DNA from: an uncultured Elusimicrobiales bacterium
GTDB taxonomy: Bacteria > Elusimicrobiota > Elusimicrobia > Elusimicrobiales > Elusimicrobiaceae
Direction: 5' to 3'
NCBI GenBank assembly: GCA_944324115.1
Contig: CALUVB010000005.1
Coordinates: 1 to 64,000, forward strand
DNA: 64,000 nt
Translations under genes and position numbers: made by a program
Part shown: positions 31,115 to 41,325 of the stretch, in pieces
Position numbering within the stretch: position 1 is the first letter of the stretch
Layout: each line of letters starts with the position of its first letter
The notes under the pieces: generated by a model
Database searches by the model: none
Told to the model about the DNA's origin: nothing
Seen by the model: the letters and a program-made list of their open reading frames with translations, nothing else

Positions 31115-32224
31115 TTATATACGCACAGGCATAATGACGTATTTTAAATCCGTGCCTTCTACCGGTTCTATGAGTACAGGCTGGGAAGCATTAACAAAAG
31201 AAAAAGACACCTTTTCACTGCCGATATTTTTTAATACGTCAATAATAAATTGAGGATTAAATGCACAATCAAACGCTTCCTGCGTGTATTCTATAGGAAG
31301 TTCATCGGTAAATTCCATATTCTGAGAAGTAGAAGAAACAGTCATAGTATTATCTTCCATATGGAATTTTACGGTGCTGCCAAATTCGCCTGAACACAAA
31401 GCTGCGCGGCGGGTGGAAGCTAATAACTCTTTGGTAAATACTTCAAAAGAAATATTTTTCTTAGTCGGAATAACCTGCTTATAATTAGGGAAATTTCCTT
31501 CTATTAAGCGGGAAATAAAGGTTGTTTCATTTAATTCAAAGCTTACTTGGTTAGAGGCTACGTTTACTTGAATCATAGCATCTTTGTCCGGTTTAGCTAA
31601 AGAGATAAAACGGACCACTTCATTTAAAATCTTAGTAGGAATAATAATTTTAAATTCACCGGAATTAGGCAATGCCGCATGGCTGGCTACCGCCAAACGG
31701 CCTCCGTCTGTAGCAACCACTTCAAATTGTTCAGCCGTATTATTCCATAATAAGCCGTTTAGAATATAACGGGTTTCCTGTGTAGAAGCGGAAAAAGCCG
31801 TTTTATCTATCATAGTTTGTAAGGCCAAGGGACTTAAACTGAGGCTGTTTGTTTTCTCAATTTCCGGAATAGCGGGATATTCTGACTTGGGAATTCCTAT
31901 TACCCAAAATTTGCTTTTGCCGGATTTAATATGAAATTTGTTATTTTCACCGGTAAAAAGATTTATCTCTTTTCCGTCGGGCAAATTTTTAATAATTTCA
32001 GAAAATTCTTTTGTCGGGATAGTAAGGCTTCCTTCTTCTTCCACTTCCGCAGGAATATAATGTACTACCGCCATTTCCATATCCGTGCGGACCAATTTCA
32101 GTTTATTGCCTTGCGTTTCAATTAAAAAGTTATGCAAAATCGGCATTGTTGTGCGGGAGGCTACTCCTGTAGAAATAACCTGTATTCCTTCCAAAAGAGT
32201 TTCTTTAGTTATGTTAATCTTCAT
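31115..32224 (-). CDS. dnaN: DNA polymerase III beta sliding clamp
   Basis: The 369-residue ring subunit tethers polymerase to DNA. Three repeated clamp domains are evident, with the domain-3 ending FNPQFIIDVLKNIGSEKVSFSFVNASQPVLIEP and final YVIMPVRI typical of DnaN. The ATG at 32224 was chosen because AGGA lies eight bases upstream and the family start (MKINITKETLLEGIQVI) follows; an open frame continues upstream through the DnaA-box region. dnaA lies 170 bp upstream in the same direction. Confidence 0.97.
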   Translation of the reverse strand: MKINITKETLLEGIQVISTGVASRTTMPILHNFLIETQGNKLKLVRTDMEMAVVHYIPAEVEEEGSLTIPTKEFSEIIKNLPDGKEINLFTGENNKFHIKSGKSKFWVIGIPKSEYPAIPEIEKTNSLSLSPLALQTMIDKTAFSASTQETRYILNGLLWNNTAEQFEVVATDGGRLAVASHAALPNSGEFKIIIPTKILNEVVRFISLAKPDKDAMIQVNVASNQVSFELNETTFISRLIEGNFPNYKQVIPTKKNISFEVFTKELLASTRRAALCSGEFGSTVKFHMEDNTMTVSSTSQNMEFTDELPIEYTQEAFDCAFNPQFIIDVLKNIGSEKVSFSFVNASQPVLIEPVEGTDLKYVIMPVRI

Positions 32225-32409
32225 ACTTTTAATCCTGTTATTATATATTGTTAATAGTGTGGATTTTGTGTATTGCCCTATACAAATTGCCTTGCGTTGC
32301 TGTGCATAAGTTTGTTTTTTTATAAACATTACACACATTGATTTTTTTTATGTGCTGATTTTTTAATTTATACTCCTTTTATCCACTGTTTTTTTATTTT
32401 TTATCCACA
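32225..32409. other. dnaA-dnaN intergenic region with DnaA boxes
   Basis: DnaA-box matches occur here: TTATGCACA on the minus strand (plus-strand TGTGCATAA, 32301-32309), TTATCCACT (32379-32387, one mismatch) and TTATCCACA (32401-32409, inside the dnaA end). The stretch is AT-rich with long T-runs. It could be one half of a two-part origin, as in Bacillus, or a site for DnaA autoregulation. Confidence 0.6.
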
Positions 32410-33758
32410 GCTTTAATGTCACTGATAATTTGGTTAATTTCTGCAGAGAAGAAAGGATCTTCTTTTATTTTTTGTTTAACTATATCTCTTGCGTATAAAA
32501 CAGTGGTGTGATCGCGGTTAAATTCACGACCTATTTCCGGCAAAGACAAATCAGTTAATTCTGTACATAAGAACATGGCAATTTGTCTAGGCCAAGCGAC
32601 CGATTGTGTTTTGCGTTTCGAGGTAAAATCTTCTATATTTATCCGCGAATGTTTCCCTACTACTTTTTTAATGGCATTTACATTTACCGCCAAGCGTTGT
32701 TCTTCTTGAATTAGAATATCTGAGAGTAATTCTTTGGCTATGGGGATAGTGGGGGTGACTCCATGAGTACTACAATATGATACTAAGCGAAACAGAGAAC
32801 CTTCCAATTCCCTAATATTTGTTTGTATACCTTCTGCAATAAAAGAAATTACATCGTCTCCAATATCAAAATGAATAGAGTCACGTTTCTGACGTAAAAT
32901 TGCAATACGGGTTTCTAAATTCGGTTTTTTGATTTCCGTAATAATTCCAGAAAGCAGACGAGAGGACAAACGTTCGTCTAAAGCTAATTGCTGCGGAGTT
33001 CTGTCTGAAGACAAAACAATTTGTTTGCGGCTTTCAAATAACGCATTAAACGTATAAAAAAATTCCATTTCGCTGGCGGATTTTCCGGCAACAAATTGAA
33101 TATCGTCCATTAAAAAACAATCCAAAGAGCGATATTTTTTACGAAAACTTTCTGAAGATTTATTTTGCAAAGCTTCTATATATTCGCCTACAAATTCTTC
33201 CCCAGACATATAAAGTACGCGCGCATTCGGATTTTGCTGTAAAATCTGGTTACCGATTGCATGCAAAAGATGGGTTTTTCCTAATCCCGGCGTAGAATAA
33301 AATACTAAGGGATTATTTTTGCGGTCTCCCATTTTATTTACTACCGCCTGTGCCGCTTTGTAAGCAAAGCGGTTGGAAGGGGATTCTATAAAATTATCAA
33401 ATCGGTATGAAGAATTAAGCCGGGCCGGAAACGGATTTTTTACTATTACCGGCGCCGGGGCAGGAGCTTGGATAATCCTTTCTATGGCGTCATGCGGATC
33501 CGGATTCGTTTCTTTTATAATATACAGAACGTTAATTTCTTGGCCCGTGTGTTGCAAAAAAGCGTCTTTAATAATCTGTTCATAGCGGTTTTGTATGGTA
33601 TTTTTCCAGACGGAGTTGGGTAATTGTATAGATAATACATTATCCTGAAAAGTAAATACTACCGGCTTAAACCACATGGTAAAGGTATCTTTGCCTAGAA
33701 TTTTTTCAATTTCGGAAAATATAGGAGCGAGATCTTCGCTGTTTGAGAGAGTGTCCAC
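32394..33758 (-). CDS. dnaA: Chromosomal replication initiator DnaA
   Basis: The 454-residue AAA+ protein opens the origin. It has an N-terminal domain for DnaB and partner contact (1-85), a short linker, the AAA+ core with Walker [16 protein letters not shown] (about 155-170) and Walker [10 protein letters not shown], and the DNA-binding domain with the DnaA signature [21 protein letters not shown] (about 410-430). The start is a GTG at 33758: no in-frame ATG follows in the N-terminal domain, and GGCGG lies about eight bases upstream. The 3' end contains a DnaA box. It is the first gene of the minus-strand group leading away from the proposed origin. Confidence 0.97.
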
Positions 33759-34194
33759 TGCTTTACCGCCATAAATTAAGATATATTACAATCTTACTAA
33801 TTATTGAATTCAGCGTCAATAAAATGAAGCGGTTTTGTAGTTTAAATAAATAGAAAAGCATAAAAGAGGCATTTTTTTAACAATCAAATACCCCTCCCTC
33901 TAATGGAGGTGCGTAAAGCGTAAATTCTTTAATTTTAGCCCAAAAAAATAAAAAATAGAGTTATCCACAGTTTTTGTAACTCCTAATTACTTTTTATATC
34001 TTGTTGTAGAAAAAGAAAGGTTTTATAATAGCAACATATAAATATAGTATAATTAAATAGGAATTTTTCTTATTTAATTTTATATTGTATACATATATTT
34101 TGGGCTGGGAAAGAAAGTATAATACGGTATAAGGTAACATATATATAATATGTATATATGTTTGTTTATGTAAATTATAAAGAGGGAGTGTTTT
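33759..34194. other. Candidate oriC: AT-rich divergent gap with a DnaA box
   Basis: The 436-bp gap separates the minus-strand genes (dnaA side) from the plus-strand genes. It carries a perfect DnaA box TTATCCACA (33961-33969) and a very AT-rich block (about 34020-34180) with many TATAAT-like stretches suited to unwinding. Only one perfect box was found. It probably also holds the divergent promoters of dnaA and the oxygen-defence genes, for example TATAAT at 34118-34123 and 34144-34149. Confidence 0.65.
33961..33969 (+). promoter_or_regulatory. DnaA box
   Basis: TTATCCACA matches the DnaA binding consensus exactly. It lies next to the AT-rich block upstream of dnaA. Confidence 0.75.
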
Positions 34195-36920: not shown

Positions 36921-38024
36921 ATGAAGATTTTATATGTATGCACTACTACGGATATGGGCGGGGCGGAGACGGCTTTGCGCGCGTTGGCTTTGGCAGCACA
37001 CAAGCAAGGACATAGCGTAAAAGTTATTTCATTGAAGCCGCTTGGCAGTATAGGCCGGGATATGCAGCAGCAAGGGCTGGAAGTGTTTTCCTTGGACATG
37101 GTTGGCAAGCTAAATCCATTGGAAACGGCGGGCGTATTGGGGCGTTTGATCCAAGAAATAGAATCGTTTCAGCCAGCCGTAGTGCATGCTTTTTTGTACC
37201 GGGCGATCCAATTGTGCCGTCTGGCAAAAAGAAAAATCCCCTGCCGTCTGATTACCACTCCTCATTATGATTTATCGCACAAAAATTATTTGTTGCGTTT
37301 GCTGGACCGGGCTTTAAAAGACGAAGACACTCTTTCTTGTGCGGAGTCACGTGCGACGGCTTCTTTTTTAGAAAAAAAACAGCGCTATGTTTCCTCTAAG
37401 CTGCGTTTTGTGTCCAACGGCGTAGATTTAAATCATTTTATTCCCGATGAAACTGCCCGGCGCCAGGCGCGTGCTCTATTGCACATTGCGGATACGGATA
37501 TTGTATTTTTGTGCGTGGCGCGTTTAGCTGCAGAGAAAAATCATTCCGTTTTGTTAGAAGCTTTTAAGGCGGTAATATCCCGTCAGACGACTGCACGGCT
37601 GTTGCTGGTAGGAGACGGGCCAGAAAAAGAGAAAATAGTGCAAATAATTCGGGCCGAAGGACTTGAAAAGGCCGTATTATTAGCAGGGGAAGTAAGTAAT
37701 GTAAAGCCTTATTTGTTAGCAAGCGATATATTTATTTTGGTGTCCTCTATTGAGAGTTTGCCGATGTCTTTATTAGAGGCTTGTTCGTGTGGGCTTCCCG
37801 CTATAGTTAGTAAATGTGGGGATATGCCCAGTGTCGTGCTGCATGGAGAAACAGGTTTTGTTTGTAATGCCAAAGATCCTATAATCATCAGCGCTTTAAT
37901 GGCGGAGTTGGCTGAAAACAAGCCGTTGCGTCAAAGAATGGGGCAGGCGGCCCGCAGACGTATAGAACGATATTATACCTCTCCAGAACAAATTTATTTA
38001 AAAATTTATAAAGAAATACAATAG
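36921..38024 (+). CDS. GT4-family glycosyltransferase
   Basis: This 367-residue retaining glycosyltransferase of the GT-B fold has the N-terminal Gly-rich loop (TTTDMGGAETALRALALAAHKQGHSV), a central GVDLNHF segment and the C-terminal nucleotide-sugar site with SSIESLPMSLLEACSCGLPAIVS, which contains the E-x7-E-like pair of GT4 enzymes. It probably adds a sugar to a cell-surface polysaccharide. Neighbours do not reveal the acceptor. No Shine-Dalgarno is visible and the -10 element lies six bases before the ATG. The stop codon TAG overlaps the first base of a parS-like palindrome. Confidence 0.9.
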   Translation: MKILYVCTTTDMGGAETALRALALAAHKQGHSVKVISLKPLGSIGRDMQQQGLEVFSLDMVGKLNPLETAGVLGRLIQEIESFQPAVVHAFLYRAIQLCRLAKRKIPCRLITTPHYDLSHKNYLLRLLDRALKDEDTLSCAESRATASFLEKKQRYVSSKLRFVSNGVDLNHFIPDETARRQARALLHIADTDIVFLCVARLAAEKNHSVLLEAFKAVISRQTTARLLLVGDGPEKEKIVQIIRAEGLEKAVLLAGEVSNVKPYLLASDIFILVSSIESLPMSLLEACSCGLPAIVSKCGDMPSVVLHGETGFVCNAKDPIIISALMAELAENKPLRQRMGQAARRRIERYYTSPEQIYLKIYKEIQ

Positions 38025-38039
38025 TTTTCACGTGGAAAC
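38024..38039. repeat. parS-like centromere site 1
   Basis: GTTTTCACGTGGAAAC is an inverted repeat with one mismatch around the CACGTG core, close to the bacterial parS consensus. It lies between the glycosyltransferase stop and lepB. Confidence 0.75.
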
Positions 38040-38049
38040 CGGAGAATAT

Positions 38050-39030
38050 ATGGAGCAAAAACTTTTTACAGTTGCTTGTATTATGTATGTTTTTTCTTGG
38101 GGAAGTAAAAGGCTTTTTCAGAAAAAACGTTTAGAAAAACCCACCTTGTTTGCCTTGTGGCATGCGGCTTTTTTGATGCTGATTTTAGGGTGTGCTTATT
38201 ATGTTTTTGATTTTATTATGAGCAGTTCTTCTCCTGTATTGCCGGAGTCGGGCATATCCGCCAAGAGTCTGTTTGTTGGTGTTGTTATTATGGCATTGGC
38301 GGGATATGGTTTTGTGGCGGCTAAACATAAGAAAGAGGAAAAGCAGCGGCAGCCTTTGATTAAAACAGATTTGGAATGGGCCAATACGGTGTATTTTGCC
38401 GGATTTGTAGCCTCTTTTGTGATGTTTTTCTTTATACAAGCTTTCAAAATTCCCTCCGCCTCTATGCAGAACACCTTATTGATTGGAGATCATTTGTTTG
38501 TGAACAAAGCGGCGTATGGTTTTCGTATTCCATTGACACAGATTCGTTTTGGTGAATTCCGCCAAATTAAACCGGGTGACATTATTGTTTTTTCTTTCCC
38601 GGCAGACACGCCGGAGCAGATTAATTGCGGGGGATATCAATATGGGCGCGATTATGTAAAGCGGGTAGTTGGTATGCCTGGAGATAAAATAGAAGTAAAA
38701 GAAGGAGTATTGTATATTAATGACCAAGAGGCCCCGTTACATGGGTATGAGATTTTTGAACCTGTTGAGCGTCTTGCTTCTGACGATATTCTAGATTCCC
38801 AGACTTATCAAATATTGTGGGAAGACCGAAAGTTAGAAGATATATACGGCCTCTCTCTGCGTGATGATTTTGGTCCTGTTATCGTACCAGAAGGAAGCTA
38901 TTTTGCTATGGGTGATAATCGGGATAATTCTTGTGATTCCCGTTTTTGGGGGCCTGTTCCTAGGGAAAATATTAAAGGAACCGCTTGGTTTATACATTGG
39001 CCACTGAGCCGTATCCGTTTAATAAAATAA
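38050..39030 (+). CDS. lepB: Signal peptidase I
   Basis: This 326-residue inner-membrane serine protease cleaves signal peptides of exported proteins. Three hydrophobic segments (about 35-56, 73-92, 111-130) precede the periplasmic catalytic domain with S138 (IPSASMQNTLL), the general-base Lys (RDYVKRVVGMPGDKIEV) and the box E motif GDNRDNSCDSRFWGPV. The long N-terminal part is typical of Gram-negative enzymes with extra membrane spans. The ATG at 38050 has GGAG five bases upstream; a GTG at 38032 lies inside the parS-like site. It sits between two parS-like regions. Confidence 0.95.
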   Translation: MEQKLFTVACIMYVFSWGSKRLFQKKRLEKPTLFALWHAAFLMLILGCAYYVFDFIMSSSSPVLPESGISAKSLFVGVVIMALAGYGFVAAKHKKEEKQRQPLIKTDLEWANTVYFAGFVASFVMFFFIQAFKIPSASMQNTLLIGDHLFVNKAAYGFRIPLTQIRFGEFRQIKPGDIIVFSFPADTPEQINCGGYQYGRDYVKRVVGMPGDKIEVKEGVLYINDQEAPLHGYEIFEPVERLASDDILDSQTYQILWEDRKLEDIYGLSLRDDFGPVIVPEGSYFAMGDNRDNSCDSRFWGPVPRENIKGTAWFIHWPLSRIRLIK

Positions 39031-39068
39031 AGGTGTTGGCTTTTGTCTGTCTATGGGATAGGCTTGGT

Positions 39069-39077
39069 TTATCCACA
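39069..39077 (+). promoter_or_regulatory. DnaA box upstream of parA
   Basis: TTATCCACA, a perfect match to the DnaA consensus. Confidence 0.7.
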
Positions 39078-39103
39078 TTCATTCACAGCCTGGCGCATAG
39101 CGT

Positions 39104-39121
39104 TGTTTCCACGTGAAAACA
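39104..39121. repeat. parS-like centromere site 2
   Basis: TGTTTCCACGTGAAAACA is an 18-bp inverted repeat with one mismatched pair outside the CACGTG core. Confidence 0.8.
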
Positions 39122-39176
39122 TGTTGTTTTCTCGTCATAACACTTCTATCTAGGTCCAGTAAGCTTGTGCATTTAA

Positions 39177-39185
39177 TTATCCACA
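39177..39185 (+). promoter_or_regulatory. DnaA box upstream of parA
   Basis: TTATCCACA, a second perfect match, 108 bp after the first and in the same orientation. Confidence 0.7.
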
Positions 39186-39205
39186 GATAAAGAAATAAGG
39201 TGCCG

Positions 39206-39221
39206 GTTTCCACGTGGAAAC
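39206..39221. repeat. parS-like centromere site 3
   Basis: GTTTCCACGTGGAAAC is a perfect 16-bp palindrome, 53 bp before the parA start. Confidence 0.82.
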
Positions 39222-39273
39222 AACGCCTTGCTTTTATGTTTTATTTATGATTTAATATAGACACGGAGGATTT

Positions 39274-40107
39274 ATGGGTGAAATAATAGCCATAGCGAAT
39301 CAAAAAGGCGGTGTGGGTAAAACGACAACGGCCATTAATCTAGCGTATGCTCTTGCTTACTTAGACCAAGAAGTCTTGTTAGTAGATTTTGACCCTCAAG
39401 GGAATGCCGGTTCCGGTTTAGGCATTACATTGGCTGACGGGGAAAAATCCGTATATCATTTATTAACGCAGAACGCCACTTTTGAAGAAGTGGTACGCCA
39501 GACATCTAATGAGATGTTAGATGTATTGCCTACCTGCAAACATTTGGCGGGTGCGGAGTTGGAATTAGTAAATGTACGCGGTAGAGAGAATATGCTGCGT
39601 AATGTGTTAAATCCGCTTCGCTCCATGTACCGCTATATCATTATAGACTGTCCCCCCTCTTTGGGGTTGTTAACGTTAAATGCACTGATGGCGGCCGACA
39701 GCGTGATCCCTCCTGTACAATGTGAATATTATGCAATGGAAGGGCTGGCTCATTTTATGTCCACTATTTCTAAAATCCAGCAATTCTTGCACACCAATTT
39801 GAAGTTAGACGGCGGAGTGCTTACCATGCATGATTCCCGCATGAACTTATCCAAGCAGGTATTTGAACAGGTAAGCCAATTTTTTGGAGATAAAGTATAC
39901 AAAACTCCTATTCCGCGTAATATCCGTTTGGCGGAAGCGCCCAGTTTTGGGCAATCTATTTTTGATTATGACCCCACCTGCCGCGGGGCCAAAGCGTATG
40001 TTCAGTTGGCGGTAGAATTTTTAGCACGGCGCGGCGCCAATGTGGCTGATTTTGTCCAGCCGGAAAAAACCGATGCCAACGCATATAATTATGATTTTGG
40101 AGGATAA
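39274..40107 (+). CDS. parA: Chromosome-partitioning ATPase ParA (Soj)
   Basis: The 277-residue deviant-Walker ATPase moves ParB-parS complexes and helps set origin segregation. The Walker A motif is KGGVGKTT (11-18, with the signature first Lys), and there is a DFDPQGNAGSGLG loop, Walker B-like YIIIDCPPSLGLLTLNAL and the C-terminal FGQSIFDYDPTCRGAKAYVQLAVEFL. It has no N-terminal HTH, as usual for chromosomal ParA. GGAGG lies upstream of the ATG. It is followed two bases later by parB and preceded by parS-like sites and DnaA boxes. Confidence 0.97.
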   Translation: MGEIIAIANQKGGVGKTTTAINLAYALAYLDQEVLLVDFDPQGNAGSGLGITLADGEKSVYHLLTQNATFEEVVRQTSNEMLDVLPTCKHLAGAELELVNVRGRENMLRNVLNPLRSMYRYIIIDCPPSLGLLTLNALMAADSVIPPVQCEYYAMEGLAHFMSTISKIQQFLHTNLKLDGGVLTMHDSRMNLSKQVFEQVSQFFGDKVYKTPIPRNIRLAEAPSFGQSIFDYDPTCRGAKAYVQLAVEFLARRGANVADFVQPEKTDANAYNYDFGG

Positions 40108-40109
40108 AT

Positions 40110-41000
40110 ATGGCCAGACAAGCTTTAGGTAAAGGGCTAGATGCCTTATTGAAGCAAACCCAAGAGGTATTGGATAATCCCGCCTCTTCATCAGCCCATA
40201 CGGCTGGAGCCAGCGTGCAGAAAATCGCTTTGGATAAAATTATTCCCAACCGTTTCCAGCCGCGCCGTGTTTTTGATGAGGGAAAACTGCAGGAGTTGGC
40301 CCAATCTATTCGTGAACATGGGTTAACTCAGCCTATTGTGGTGGTTTATGACGCCGGATTGGATAAATATGAAATTGTCGTAGGGGAACGTCGTTTCCGT
40401 GCCAGCCAGTTGGCCGGGTTAAGCGATATTGATGCATTGGTGCACAAGGCATTAACTGACCAACAAATGTGCGCATTGGCGCTGATTGAAAATATCCAAC
40501 GGGAAGACTTAAACCCCATAGAAACGGCTTTGGGATACCGCAACTTAATAAATAAGTTCGGCATTTCTCAAACGGATTTAGCCCAATACTGCGGTAAATC
40601 TAAGGGGGCGGTTTCCAATTCGTTGCGTTTGCTGGAATTGCCGCAGCATATGCAGGAAGCTTTGCAAGATGGAACGATTACGGAAGGACACGGCAAGGCC
40701 CTTTTGATGTTGGCTGATCCGGCTAAAAAAGAAACCCTTTTTCAACGCATGAAGAAGACAAAAATGTCGGTCCGCCAAGCGGAAGACGCCGCTCATGCAC
40801 TCTTGCAGCCTGCCGCCGCCCAAAAGCTGCCCAAACCGCCGGAAGTGGCCTCTTTTGAAAATGAATTGCAGGCCGCTTTAGGCACCAAAGTAGAAGTGCG
40901 CTACGGTAAAAAAATGTCTAAAGGGGTATTGATTATTCAATACCATTCTTTGGAAGAGTTGGATAATTTAGCCAGTCGTTTGAAAATGAAGCTGTTATAA
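40110..41000 (+). CDS. parB: Chromosome-partitioning protein ParB (Spo0J)
   Basis: This 296-residue CTP-dependent DNA clamp loads at parS sites. The N-terminal CTPase domain has the PRRVFDEGKLQELAQSI region, GERRFRASQLAGL and ENIQREDLNPIETALGYRNL motifs; a helix-turn-helix (ISQTDLAQYCGKSKGAVSNSLRLLELP) recognises parS, and a short C-terminal domain (about 245-296) dimerises. A GGAGG site precedes the ATG. Three good parS-like palindromes lie within 2 kb upstream. A strong terminator follows. Confidence 0.97.
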   Translation: MARQALGKGLDALLKQTQEVLDNPASSSAHTAGASVQKIALDKIIPNRFQPRRVFDEGKLQELAQSIREHGLTQPIVVVYDAGLDKYEIVVGERRFRASQLAGLSDIDALVHKALTDQQMCALALIENIQREDLNPIETALGYRNLINKFGISQTDLAQYCGKSKGAVSNSLRLLELPQHMQEALQDGTITEGHGKALLMLADPAKKETLFQRMKKTKMSVRQAEDAAHALLQPAAAQKLPKPPEVASFENELQAALGTKVEVRYGKKMSKGVLIIQYHSLEELDNLASRLKMKLL

Positions 41001-41013
41001 ATGTTTGAAAAGC

Positions 41014-41046
41014 AAACCGGACCCGCTGACAACGGGTCCGGTTTTT
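41014..41046 (+). terminator. Terminator of parAB
   Basis: AAACCGGACCCG-ctgacaa-CGGGTCCGGTTT is a perfect 12-bp stem running into a T-tract, 14 bases after the parB stop. Confidence 0.92.
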
Positions 41047-41309
41047 ATATATAGGCCTTACAGAGGTGCCGGTGGGTTATACATGCATGTATGAAGGCGG
41101 CGATATCAAATGGCACAGCAAAGCGCTGCCGGACCGTACTATCTGTTGTCTTCTTGGCGGGATCTAAAACCTGCATTATTCGTATCATCGGTCAAAATAT
41201 ATGTTGGGACTGGTTGCAATTCGGGTATTTGTCGGTGGGATAAAAAGAGAGTCCTTTCGGTTCCTTTTAATGACAGGCTGTAAAAAGAATGTTGGTTTAT
41301 TTCAGCTTA

Positions 41310-41325
41310 GTTTCCATGTGAAAAC
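41310..41325. repeat. Degenerate parS-like element
   Basis: GTTTCCATGTGAAAAC resembles the three parS-like sites but has CATGTG in place of the CACGTG core. ParB binding is doubtful. Confidence 0.35.

What the first reader, a model, noticed from the sequence alone, without database searches (positions are those of the whole stretch)
32301..34194. Likely bipartite oriC around dnaA
Transcription direction switches at 33.8-34.2 kb. The 436-bp gap there is very AT-rich and has a perfect DnaA box, and the dnaA-dnaN gap has a second box group (32301, 32379, 32401). This resembles two-part origins where dnaA lies between box clusters. The genes dnaA, dnaN, dciA, gyrB and gyrA are all present.
Basis: partly seen in the sequence, partly recalled or inferred. 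Interest (0 to 1): 0.5.

Follow-up and report, generated by a model that had tools for sequence, protein, structure and literature searches.

The report
One-sided replication origin beside dnaA
This stretch of an Elusimicrobiota bacterium's chromosome very probably holds its DNA replication start site, but the conserved start-protein binding sites lie almost all on one side of the dnaA gene, and further groups of the same sites sit in front of the chromosome-partition genes and of an outer-membrane lipoprotein gene.

Summary
An origin at or very near dnaA is well supported: in a two-contig relative, GC skew changes sign at dnaA. "Bipartite" is only weakly supported. Of 46 genus genomes (window included), 42 hold at least 2 perfect boxes in the dnaA-dnaN gap; the 71-450 bp upstream of dnaA hold one in 16 and never two. 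Other families of the phylum have a box cluster directly upstream of dnaA; here it is weak. I read a one-sided oriC (32225-32410) with an accessory upstream box.

oriC, parA and this site share TTGTAKAG-N-ATCCACA (54 matches in 61 genomes, 49 at these three places; reversed control 1). That suggests one DnaA-centred circuit linking replication, segregation and envelope. No binding was tested.

The parts
32225..32393 (.). dnaA-dnaN gap: proposed oriC core (box array)
   Evidence: at least 1 perfect box in 46 of 46 and at least 2 in 42 of 46 genus genomes
32401..32409 (+). DnaA box A, TTATCCACA, inside the last dnaA codons
   Evidence: nearly invariant in the 63-row alignment
32379..32387 (+). 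DnaA box B, TTATCCACT (1 mismatch)
32320..32337 (+). weak DnaA boxes C (TTATAAACA, TTACACACA; 1 mismatch each)
32301..32309 (-). DnaA box D, TTATGCACA
32258..32285 (-). composite element TTGTATAG-N13-ATCCACA ending in weak box E (AAATCCACA, 32258-32266)
   Evidence: same 28-bp length in 16 of 16 exact oriC matches
32205..32257 (.). candidate DNA unwinding element from box E to just inside the dnaN start
   Evidence: least stable part of the region averaged over 36 loci (centre about 170 bp beyond the dnaA stop); function inferred
32394..33758 (-). dnaA
   Evidence: TIGR00362
31115..32224 (-). dnaN
   Evidence: TIGR00663
33759..34194 (.). divergent dnaA-dfx gap, AT-rich
33961..33969 (+). single upstream DnaA box, 203-211 bp before the dnaA start; accessory
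   Evidence: 16 of 46 genus genomes
34037..34096 (.). least stable 60 bp of the window (possible second unwinding site or promoter region)
39031..39273 (.). lepB-parA gap with DnaA boxes and parS-like sites
39069..39077 (+). DnaA box TTATCCACA before parA, followed by weak TCATTCACA at 39079-39087
39177..39185 (+). DnaA box TTATCCACA before parA
39105..39120 (.). parS-like GTTTCCACGTGAAAAC
39206..39221 (.). parS-like GTTTCCACGTGGAAAC
38024..38039 (.). parS-like GTTTTCACGTGGAAAC
41310..41325 (.). parS-like GTTTCCATGTGAAAAC (1 mismatch)
39274..40107 (+). parA
   Evidence: AAA_31
40110..41000 (+). parB

Best explanation
The region is the chromosome replication origin of an Elusimicrobiota bacterium. 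Its working core is the roughly 170-bp dnaA-dnaN gap together with the last codons of dnaA: DnaA binds boxes A-D, then the group next to the unwinding site (TTGTATAG element, weak abutting boxes around box E), and opens the AT-rich stretch at the dnaN start (inferred). The single box upstream of dnaA is a lineage-specific accessory site, more likely regulatory than a second origin half. DnaA also very probably binds two other places: the parS/parA promoter 5 kb away and, outside the window, the promoter of an OmpA-family lipoprotein. It would so tie segregation and envelope gene expression, or DnaA titration, to the initiator (inferred). Shown: the sequences, their conservation and the skew change. 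Not shown: any binding, unwinding or regulation.
For: GC skew sign change at dnaA in G047 and skew minimum 33228 in the window. Neighbourhood parB-parA-lepB-GT-fprA-dfx|dnaA-dnaN-dciA-gyrB-gyrA conserved in the 36 named relatives as far as their contigs reach, L037 apart. TTATNCACA density in the window and 36 relatives: 13.2/kb in the dnaN-dnaA gap, 0.53/kb in the dnaA-dfx gap, 3.4/kb in the lepB-parA gap, 0.046/kb elsewhere. In 46 distinct genus loci: gap boxes with <=1 mismatch 26.7/kb against 2.2/kb for the reversed pattern; at least 2 perfect in 42 of 46; near-upstream at least 2 perfect in 0 of 46, far-upstream at least 2 in 0 of 46. Alignment of 63 gaps shows boxes at fixed places. The dnaN end of the gap is the least stable part on average.
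Against: The least stable 60 bp of the window are in the upstream gap (34066), not in the dnaA-dnaN gap. The window's box E is degenerate (AAATCCACA), and only 2 perfect TTATNCACA boxes remain in its array. Near-upstream weak boxes in the genus are slightly above control (8.2/kb against 4.6/kb; at least 1 perfect in 8 of 46), so the upstream side is not empty everywhere. DnaA-trios after box E are not above shuffles. Skew cannot separate sites a few kb apart, and gene direction changes at the same place. The skew test was made in a relative (83% DnaA identity), because the window's own genome is 25 contigs.
Confidence: 0.72

Rival explanations
1. True bipartite oriC as in Bacillus subtilis or Helicobacter pylori: DnaA bound at 33961 and at the dnaA-dnaN array interacts and loops out dnaA; the AT-rich upstream gap may even be the unwinding site.
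For: Perfect box 33961 in a conserved context (A-rich tract, then AGTTATCCACAG) in 10 of 10 near loci chosen for alignment, 16 of 46 genus genomes; least stable 60 bp of the window about 100 bp away; outside the genus, boxes stand on both sides of dnaA (near-upstream 15-30/kb and gap 9-23/kb by group, controls 0-4/kb).
Against: One box is not a cluster: <=1-mismatch boxes in the window's upstream gap are at the shuffle level (255 of 500) and, genus-wide, far-upstream density is 1.9/kb against 1.5/kb for the reversed pattern. 30 of 46 genus genomes lack a perfect far-upstream box.
Confidence: 0.18
2. The upstream box only regulates transcription of dnaA and/or dfx, with no part in initiation (this concerns the upstream box alone and is compatible with the main explanation).
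For: It lies between two divergent genes whose gap holds several conserved TATAAT-like elements, and outside the genus many of the boxes just upstream of dnaA lie within about 60 bp of, or at, the dnaA start.
Against: At 203-211 bp before the dnaA start it is far from the dnaA promoter that I infer from the alignment; no expression data.
Confidence: 0.45
3. The initiation site is really the lepB-parA gap (39.03-39.27 kb), the dnaA-side boxes being regulatory.
For: Two perfect boxes (0 of 500 shuffles reach this), next to parS-like sites.
Against: Boxes absent from 27 of 40 lepB-parA gaps of the genus; skew minimum at 33.2 kb; the gap is not especially unstable.
Confidence: 0.03

Closest known systems
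Bacillus subtilis / Helicobacter pylori bipartite oriC (passages of PMC8235120)
   Same: DnaA boxes beyond the dnaA 3' end with an AT-rich unwinding stretch; dnaA between box-bearing gaps
   Different: B. subtilis oriC1 is given as 13 boxes; here a single upstream box, in only 16 of 46 genus genomes; no trio array found after box E
Basal unwinding system, BUS (passages of PMC8287927)
   Same: DnaA boxes next to an AT-rich region
   Different: DnaA-trio runs after box E not above shuffles in 36 loci
Caulobacter crescentus DnaA at parS, and Vibrio cholerae RctB at parS2 (passages of the review PMC6399470; the primary paper of Mera 2014 was not held)
   Same: initiator boxes next to a centromere site a few kb from oriC
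   Different: other phylum; boxes sit in the parA promoter gap; binding untested
E. coli DARS1/DARS2 and datA (passages of PMC5742627; E. coli K-12 stretches L210, L211, in which I took the box triples for the DARS cores from recalled positions)
   Same: box cluster far from oriC; the lipoprotein-promoter triple has two boxes one way and one the other, as the DARS core
   Different: steps of 11 and 12 bp against 12 and 14 in the E. coli triples; lies in a promoter region; no IHF or Fis site examined

Membership tests
chromosomal oriC | GC-skew sign change at the site | tested here: met
   29 sampled stretches of relative G047; window minimum 33228; G090 less regular
chromosomal oriC | clustered DnaA boxes above chance and conserved | tested here: met
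chromosomal oriC | replication actually starts there | not testable with these tools
   needs read depth or marker frequency
bipartite oriC | a cluster of DnaA boxes on each side of dnaA | tested here: not met
   one box upstream in the window; no far-upstream or near-upstream stretch with 2 perfect boxes in 46 genus loci
bipartite oriC | both sub-regions needed, DnaA loops out dnaA | not testable with these tools
   needs experiments
BUS | three or more DnaA-trios within 16 bp of a box | tested here: inconclusive
   scored only after box E in 36 loci; relaxed runs of 3 or more in 22% against 23% of shuffles, strict motif 0%; other boxes not scored
DARS (for the lipoprotein-promoter cluster) | three boxes, one opposite to the other two | tested here: met
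DARS (for the lipoprotein-promoter cluster) | same core spacing as DARS1/DARS2 | tested here: not met
DARS or datA | ADP release or ATP hydrolysis on DnaA; IHF binding | not testable with these tools
   needs experiments
canonical parS | TGTTTCACGTGAAACA within 3 mismatches | tested here: not met
   0 in the window; the 16-mer GTTTYCACGTGRAAAC is found instead
DnaA-centromere crosstalk (Caulobacter type) | DnaA boxes at parS | tested here: met
   window and 12 other gaps, 13 of 40
DnaA-centromere crosstalk (Caulobacter type) | DnaA binds there and affects segregation | not testable with these tools
   needs experiments

The most novel reading that the evidence does not exclude
In this lineage one composite DnaA-binding element (TTGTAKAG, a usual 13-bp step, then ATCCACA, with further boxes) stands in front of three kinds of target: the replication origin, the parS/parA centromere region (there with a longer step) and an OmpA-family (Pal-like) envelope gene. 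A single initiator, perhaps with an unknown partner reading TTGTAKAG, would then time replication, segregation and envelope growth together.
Probability: 0.3. Interest if true: 0.75.

Novelty: new variant of a known kind. Interest (0 to 1): 0.5.

Why it matters
My searches of the held library (listings only, texts not read) listed no paper titled on an Elusimicrobiota origin. The comparison suggests that the main DnaA-box cluster moved from the 5' flank of dnaA (most other families) to its 3' flank (this genus, with the rest of the family between), a change of origin layout within one phylum. The DnaA boxes at the centromere and at an envelope gene would give a further, independent case of initiator-centromere coupling, testable in vitro with one purified protein.

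Tried and rejected
Tried and rejected or left open: (1) origin at the parA gap (rejected). (2) The lipoprotein-promoter cluster as the true origin: G047 skew does not change sign near C2:484 kb (-0.069 at 450 kb, -0.066 at 525 kb); rejected. (3) DnaA-trio search after box E: negative. (4) The parA gap as a copied piece of oriC: plain local alignment beat all 300 shuffles in none of 12 genomes (reached by 4 to 193 of 300); the 'boxes masked' variant is invalid because masked letters matched each other. Only the short composite element supports a link. (5) DARS membership: order met, spacing not met. (6) One search had a slicing error for a locus whose contig starts inside dnaA (L025), which inflated the far-upstream length; one search repeats the count with L025 and L141 (upstream) and L060, L140, L146, L149, L160 (gap) left out. 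(7) The first tree call (64) failed on overlapping labels and was repeated; its count of label changes (4, shuffles as low in 241 of 500 for the main group) says nothing, since nearly all labelled rows are carriers; the one-clade statement is my reading of the tree. (8) In one search, L027, L067 and L060 were left out (broken or distant dnaN match), as was L039, which is the window itself; some of the 63 rows are the same genome under two locus ids.

Full report
What is there. The window is nearly all of contig C5 (64,359 bp) of a 1.53-Mb, 25-contig genome. Relatives found by DnaA are uncultured Elusimicrobiales / Elusimicrobium metagenome genomes, some titled from rumen or faeces. On the minus strand lie dnaA 32394-33758, dnaN 31115-32224, a DciA-like gene, gyrB and gyrA; on the plus strand dfx (desulfoferrodoxin), fprA, a rubredoxin-like gene, a glycosyltransferase, lepB, parA and parB (rubredoxin, glycosyltransferase and lepB are named by me from the translations). 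This order is conserved in the 36 named relatives as far as their contigs reach, L037 apart (the short rubredoxin gene was matched in only a few).

The observation. Box 32401 is inside dnaA's last codons. Shuffles show that the dnaA-dnaN group is far above chance, that the upstream gap is not a cluster, and that the lepB-parA gap is a third group (perfect TTATNCACA reached by 0, 9 and 0 of 500 shuffles; with 1 mismatch by 0, 255 and 3 of 500).

Is it the origin? I sampled 29 stretches of relative G047 (2 contigs, DnaA 83% identical). On contig C1 skew is -0.09 to -0.02 in the 7 samples between 1 and 220 kb, 0.006 at 220-228 kb (dnaA is at 222.1-223.5 kb) and +0.04 to +0.08 in all 12 samples beyond; contig C2 turns from plus to minus between 83 and 150 kb, as a terminus would. 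In the one-contig relative G090 (unnamed; its length would fit Elusimicrobium minutum, recalled, not checked) skew is positive after dnaA and negative before the contig end, with irregular values between. The window's cumulative minimum is 33228. Gene direction turns at the same place, so skew locates the origin to a few kb, not to one gap.

One side or two? In 36 relatives plus the window, TTATNCACA counts are 103 in 7.8 kb of dnaN-dnaA gap (37 loci), 10 in 18.8 kb of dnaA-dfx gap (35 loci), 14 in 4.1 kb of lepB-parA gap (32 loci) and 33 in 710 kb elsewhere. After removing repeated dnaA genes 100 loci remained, 47 of them of the genus; for each measure 46 of these 47 could be scored: gap with at least 1 perfect TTATNCACA 46 of 46 and at least 2 in 42 of 46; 70 bp before dnaA with at least 1 in 8 and at least 2 in 0 of 46; 71-450 bp before dnaA with at least 1 in 16 and at least 2 in 0 of 46. 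Those 16 are the box at about -209. Outside the genus the picture is turned round: at least 1 perfect box within 70 bp before dnaA in 35 of 52 loci and at least 2 in 21 of 52, against at least 2 in the gap in 4 of 49 and at least 1 in 17 of 49 (sums of the rows). The other genera of the window's own family lie between: 2 of 9 loci with a perfect near-upstream box, 6 of 9 with a perfect box in the gap. In the other families the upstream boxes often stand 11 bp apart (for example -32, -21, -10). So most of the phylum has its strong cluster at the 5' flank of dnaA with weaker boxes beyond dnaA, and this genus has the strong cluster at the 3' flank. The direction of the change is inferred.

Anatomy of the core. 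The alignment of 63 gaps shows boxes A and B (TGTGGATAA, dnaA-sense), weak box C, box D (TTATnCACA), then TTTGTATAGGG, then roughly three abutting 9-mers (..ACA..ATCCACA..ATnAACA) and an AT-rich stretch up to the dnaN start. In 46 loci a 40-bp block around box E was placed without gaps by best match. The least stable 40-bp windows, averaged over 36 loci, lie at the dnaN start (mean -1.01 per step, against -1.07 for the least stable upstream place). I infer that this is the unwinding element. A DnaA-trio run after box E was not above shuffles. The least stable 60 bp of the window itself are at 34066 in the upstream gap, which speaks for the rival reading.

Second group: parA. Two perfect boxes at 39069 and 39177 lie among parS-like palindromes. 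Of 40 different lepB-parA gaps examined, 13 hold 1-3 perfect TTATCCACA and 27 hold none, not even TTATNCACA. In the DnaA tree the 12 carriers that are in it fall in one 15-row clade (support 100/96); three members of that clade were not tested (L008, L045, L068), and one carrier, G023 (L221), is not in the tree. The parA promoter and parS-like sites are conserved in most gaps; 4 of 40 gaps lack an exact match to the 16-mer pattern.

Third group: outside the window. G000 has 23 perfect TTATCCACA (reversed control 14); apart from the window only C3:67818-68145 is a cluster. It lies before an OmpA-family lipoprotein gene (PF00691; lipoprotein and Pal-like are my reading). In 17 of 17 genomes examined there are at least 2 perfect TTATNCACA in the 420 bp upstream, and five boxes (up to 1 mismatch) stand at steps of 20, 83-84, 11-12 and 12 bp. 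The triple TTATCCACA-2-TTATCCACA-3-TGTGGATAA (up to 3 mismatches) occurs in 32 of 148 phylum genomes with 0 reversed controls: 29 of 31 in the genus (not in G040, G060), G090, and two distant genomes (G129, G151) where it lies just upstream of dnaA (the dnaA match begins 53 bp further on, at query residue 19). Of the 30 genus and G090 loci, 29 have it within 400 bp upstream of the lipoprotein gene and 1 at 765 bp. The E. coli triples that I take for the DARS1 and DARS2 cores have the same order read backwards but steps of 12 and 14 bp.

A shared composite element. TTGTAKAG-N{6,36}-ATCCACA was found 54 times in 33 of 61 genus genomes, the reversed control once; 28 of 61 have no exact match. By place, counted by me: 16 in the dnaA-dnaN gap; 12 in the parA gap (10 by position about 5 kb from dnaA, 2 only by letters identical to such a site, on other contigs: G020:C3, G052:C84); 21 before the lipoprotein gene (three genomes give two overlapping matches; G001 by a partial gene match; G049 at about 765 bp); 5 elsewhere (G041:C31, G019:C80, G022:C120, G039:C2, G054:C11). 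The matched length is 28 bp in 16 of 16 oriC matches and 15 of 21 lipoprotein matches (the rest 29, 38 or 39), and 40-42 bp in the parA gap. In the window it is at 32258-32285(-) only; the window's own parA gap lacks it. TTTGTATAG read backwards (CTATACAAA) differs from a DnaA box at two positions, so it may be a weak inverted DnaA site or the site of another protein. TGTATAG stands at a similar place (+76 to +80) in the gap of 5 loci of genus g2. A copy of oriC at parA is not shown: alignment scores did not beat shuffles.

What it means. The origin itself is an ordinary oriC with a one-sided layout. What would be new is the set of other DnaA-box groups at the centromere and at an envelope gene, sharing an element with oriC. 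Precedents for the first are Caulobacter DnaA at parS and RctB at parS2 (passages of a review). For the second, datA/DARS-type control sites or simple transcriptional control are both open.

Noticed in passing
window 38024-41325; genomes: parS-like sites are a 16-mer palindrome GTTTYCACGTGRAAAC, one base longer per half than the canonical parS core. In G000 all 4 sites (one with a mismatch) lie within 3.3 kb around parAB. Exact GTTTTCACGTGAAAAC also in G168, G073, G166, G124, G177, G136 (not in G130), while G080, G061, G092, G085, G095 carry the exact canonical parS. No paper of the library held the three spellings searched.
   Followed up: partly
window 40110-41000 (ParB): The best solved relatives by sequence are Noc proteins, and the recognition helix has K where the ParB of 4umk has R; this may go with the altered parS.
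   Followed up: no
G000:C4, L070:1635-5162(-): A 1175-aa open frame with a DnaA-type ATPase domain at residues 788-944 (PF00308, E 2.9e-30); a second, weaker DnaA match in a long open frame appears in nearly every genus genome. Function unknown.
   Followed up: no
L002 / G000:C3:67.8-68.15 kb: Strongly conserved non-coding DnaA-box cluster before an OmpA-family lipoprotein gene (treated in the report).
   Followed up: partly
G129:C22:2112-2143 and G151:C39:102-133: In two distant genomes the same DnaA-box triple lies just upstream of dnaA itself.
   Followed up: partly
phylum genomes G064, G072, G083, G092: Second DnaA-like matches at 41-44% identity over the ATPase domain in other open frames (the list was cut), suggesting a DnaA paralogue family.
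   Followed up: no
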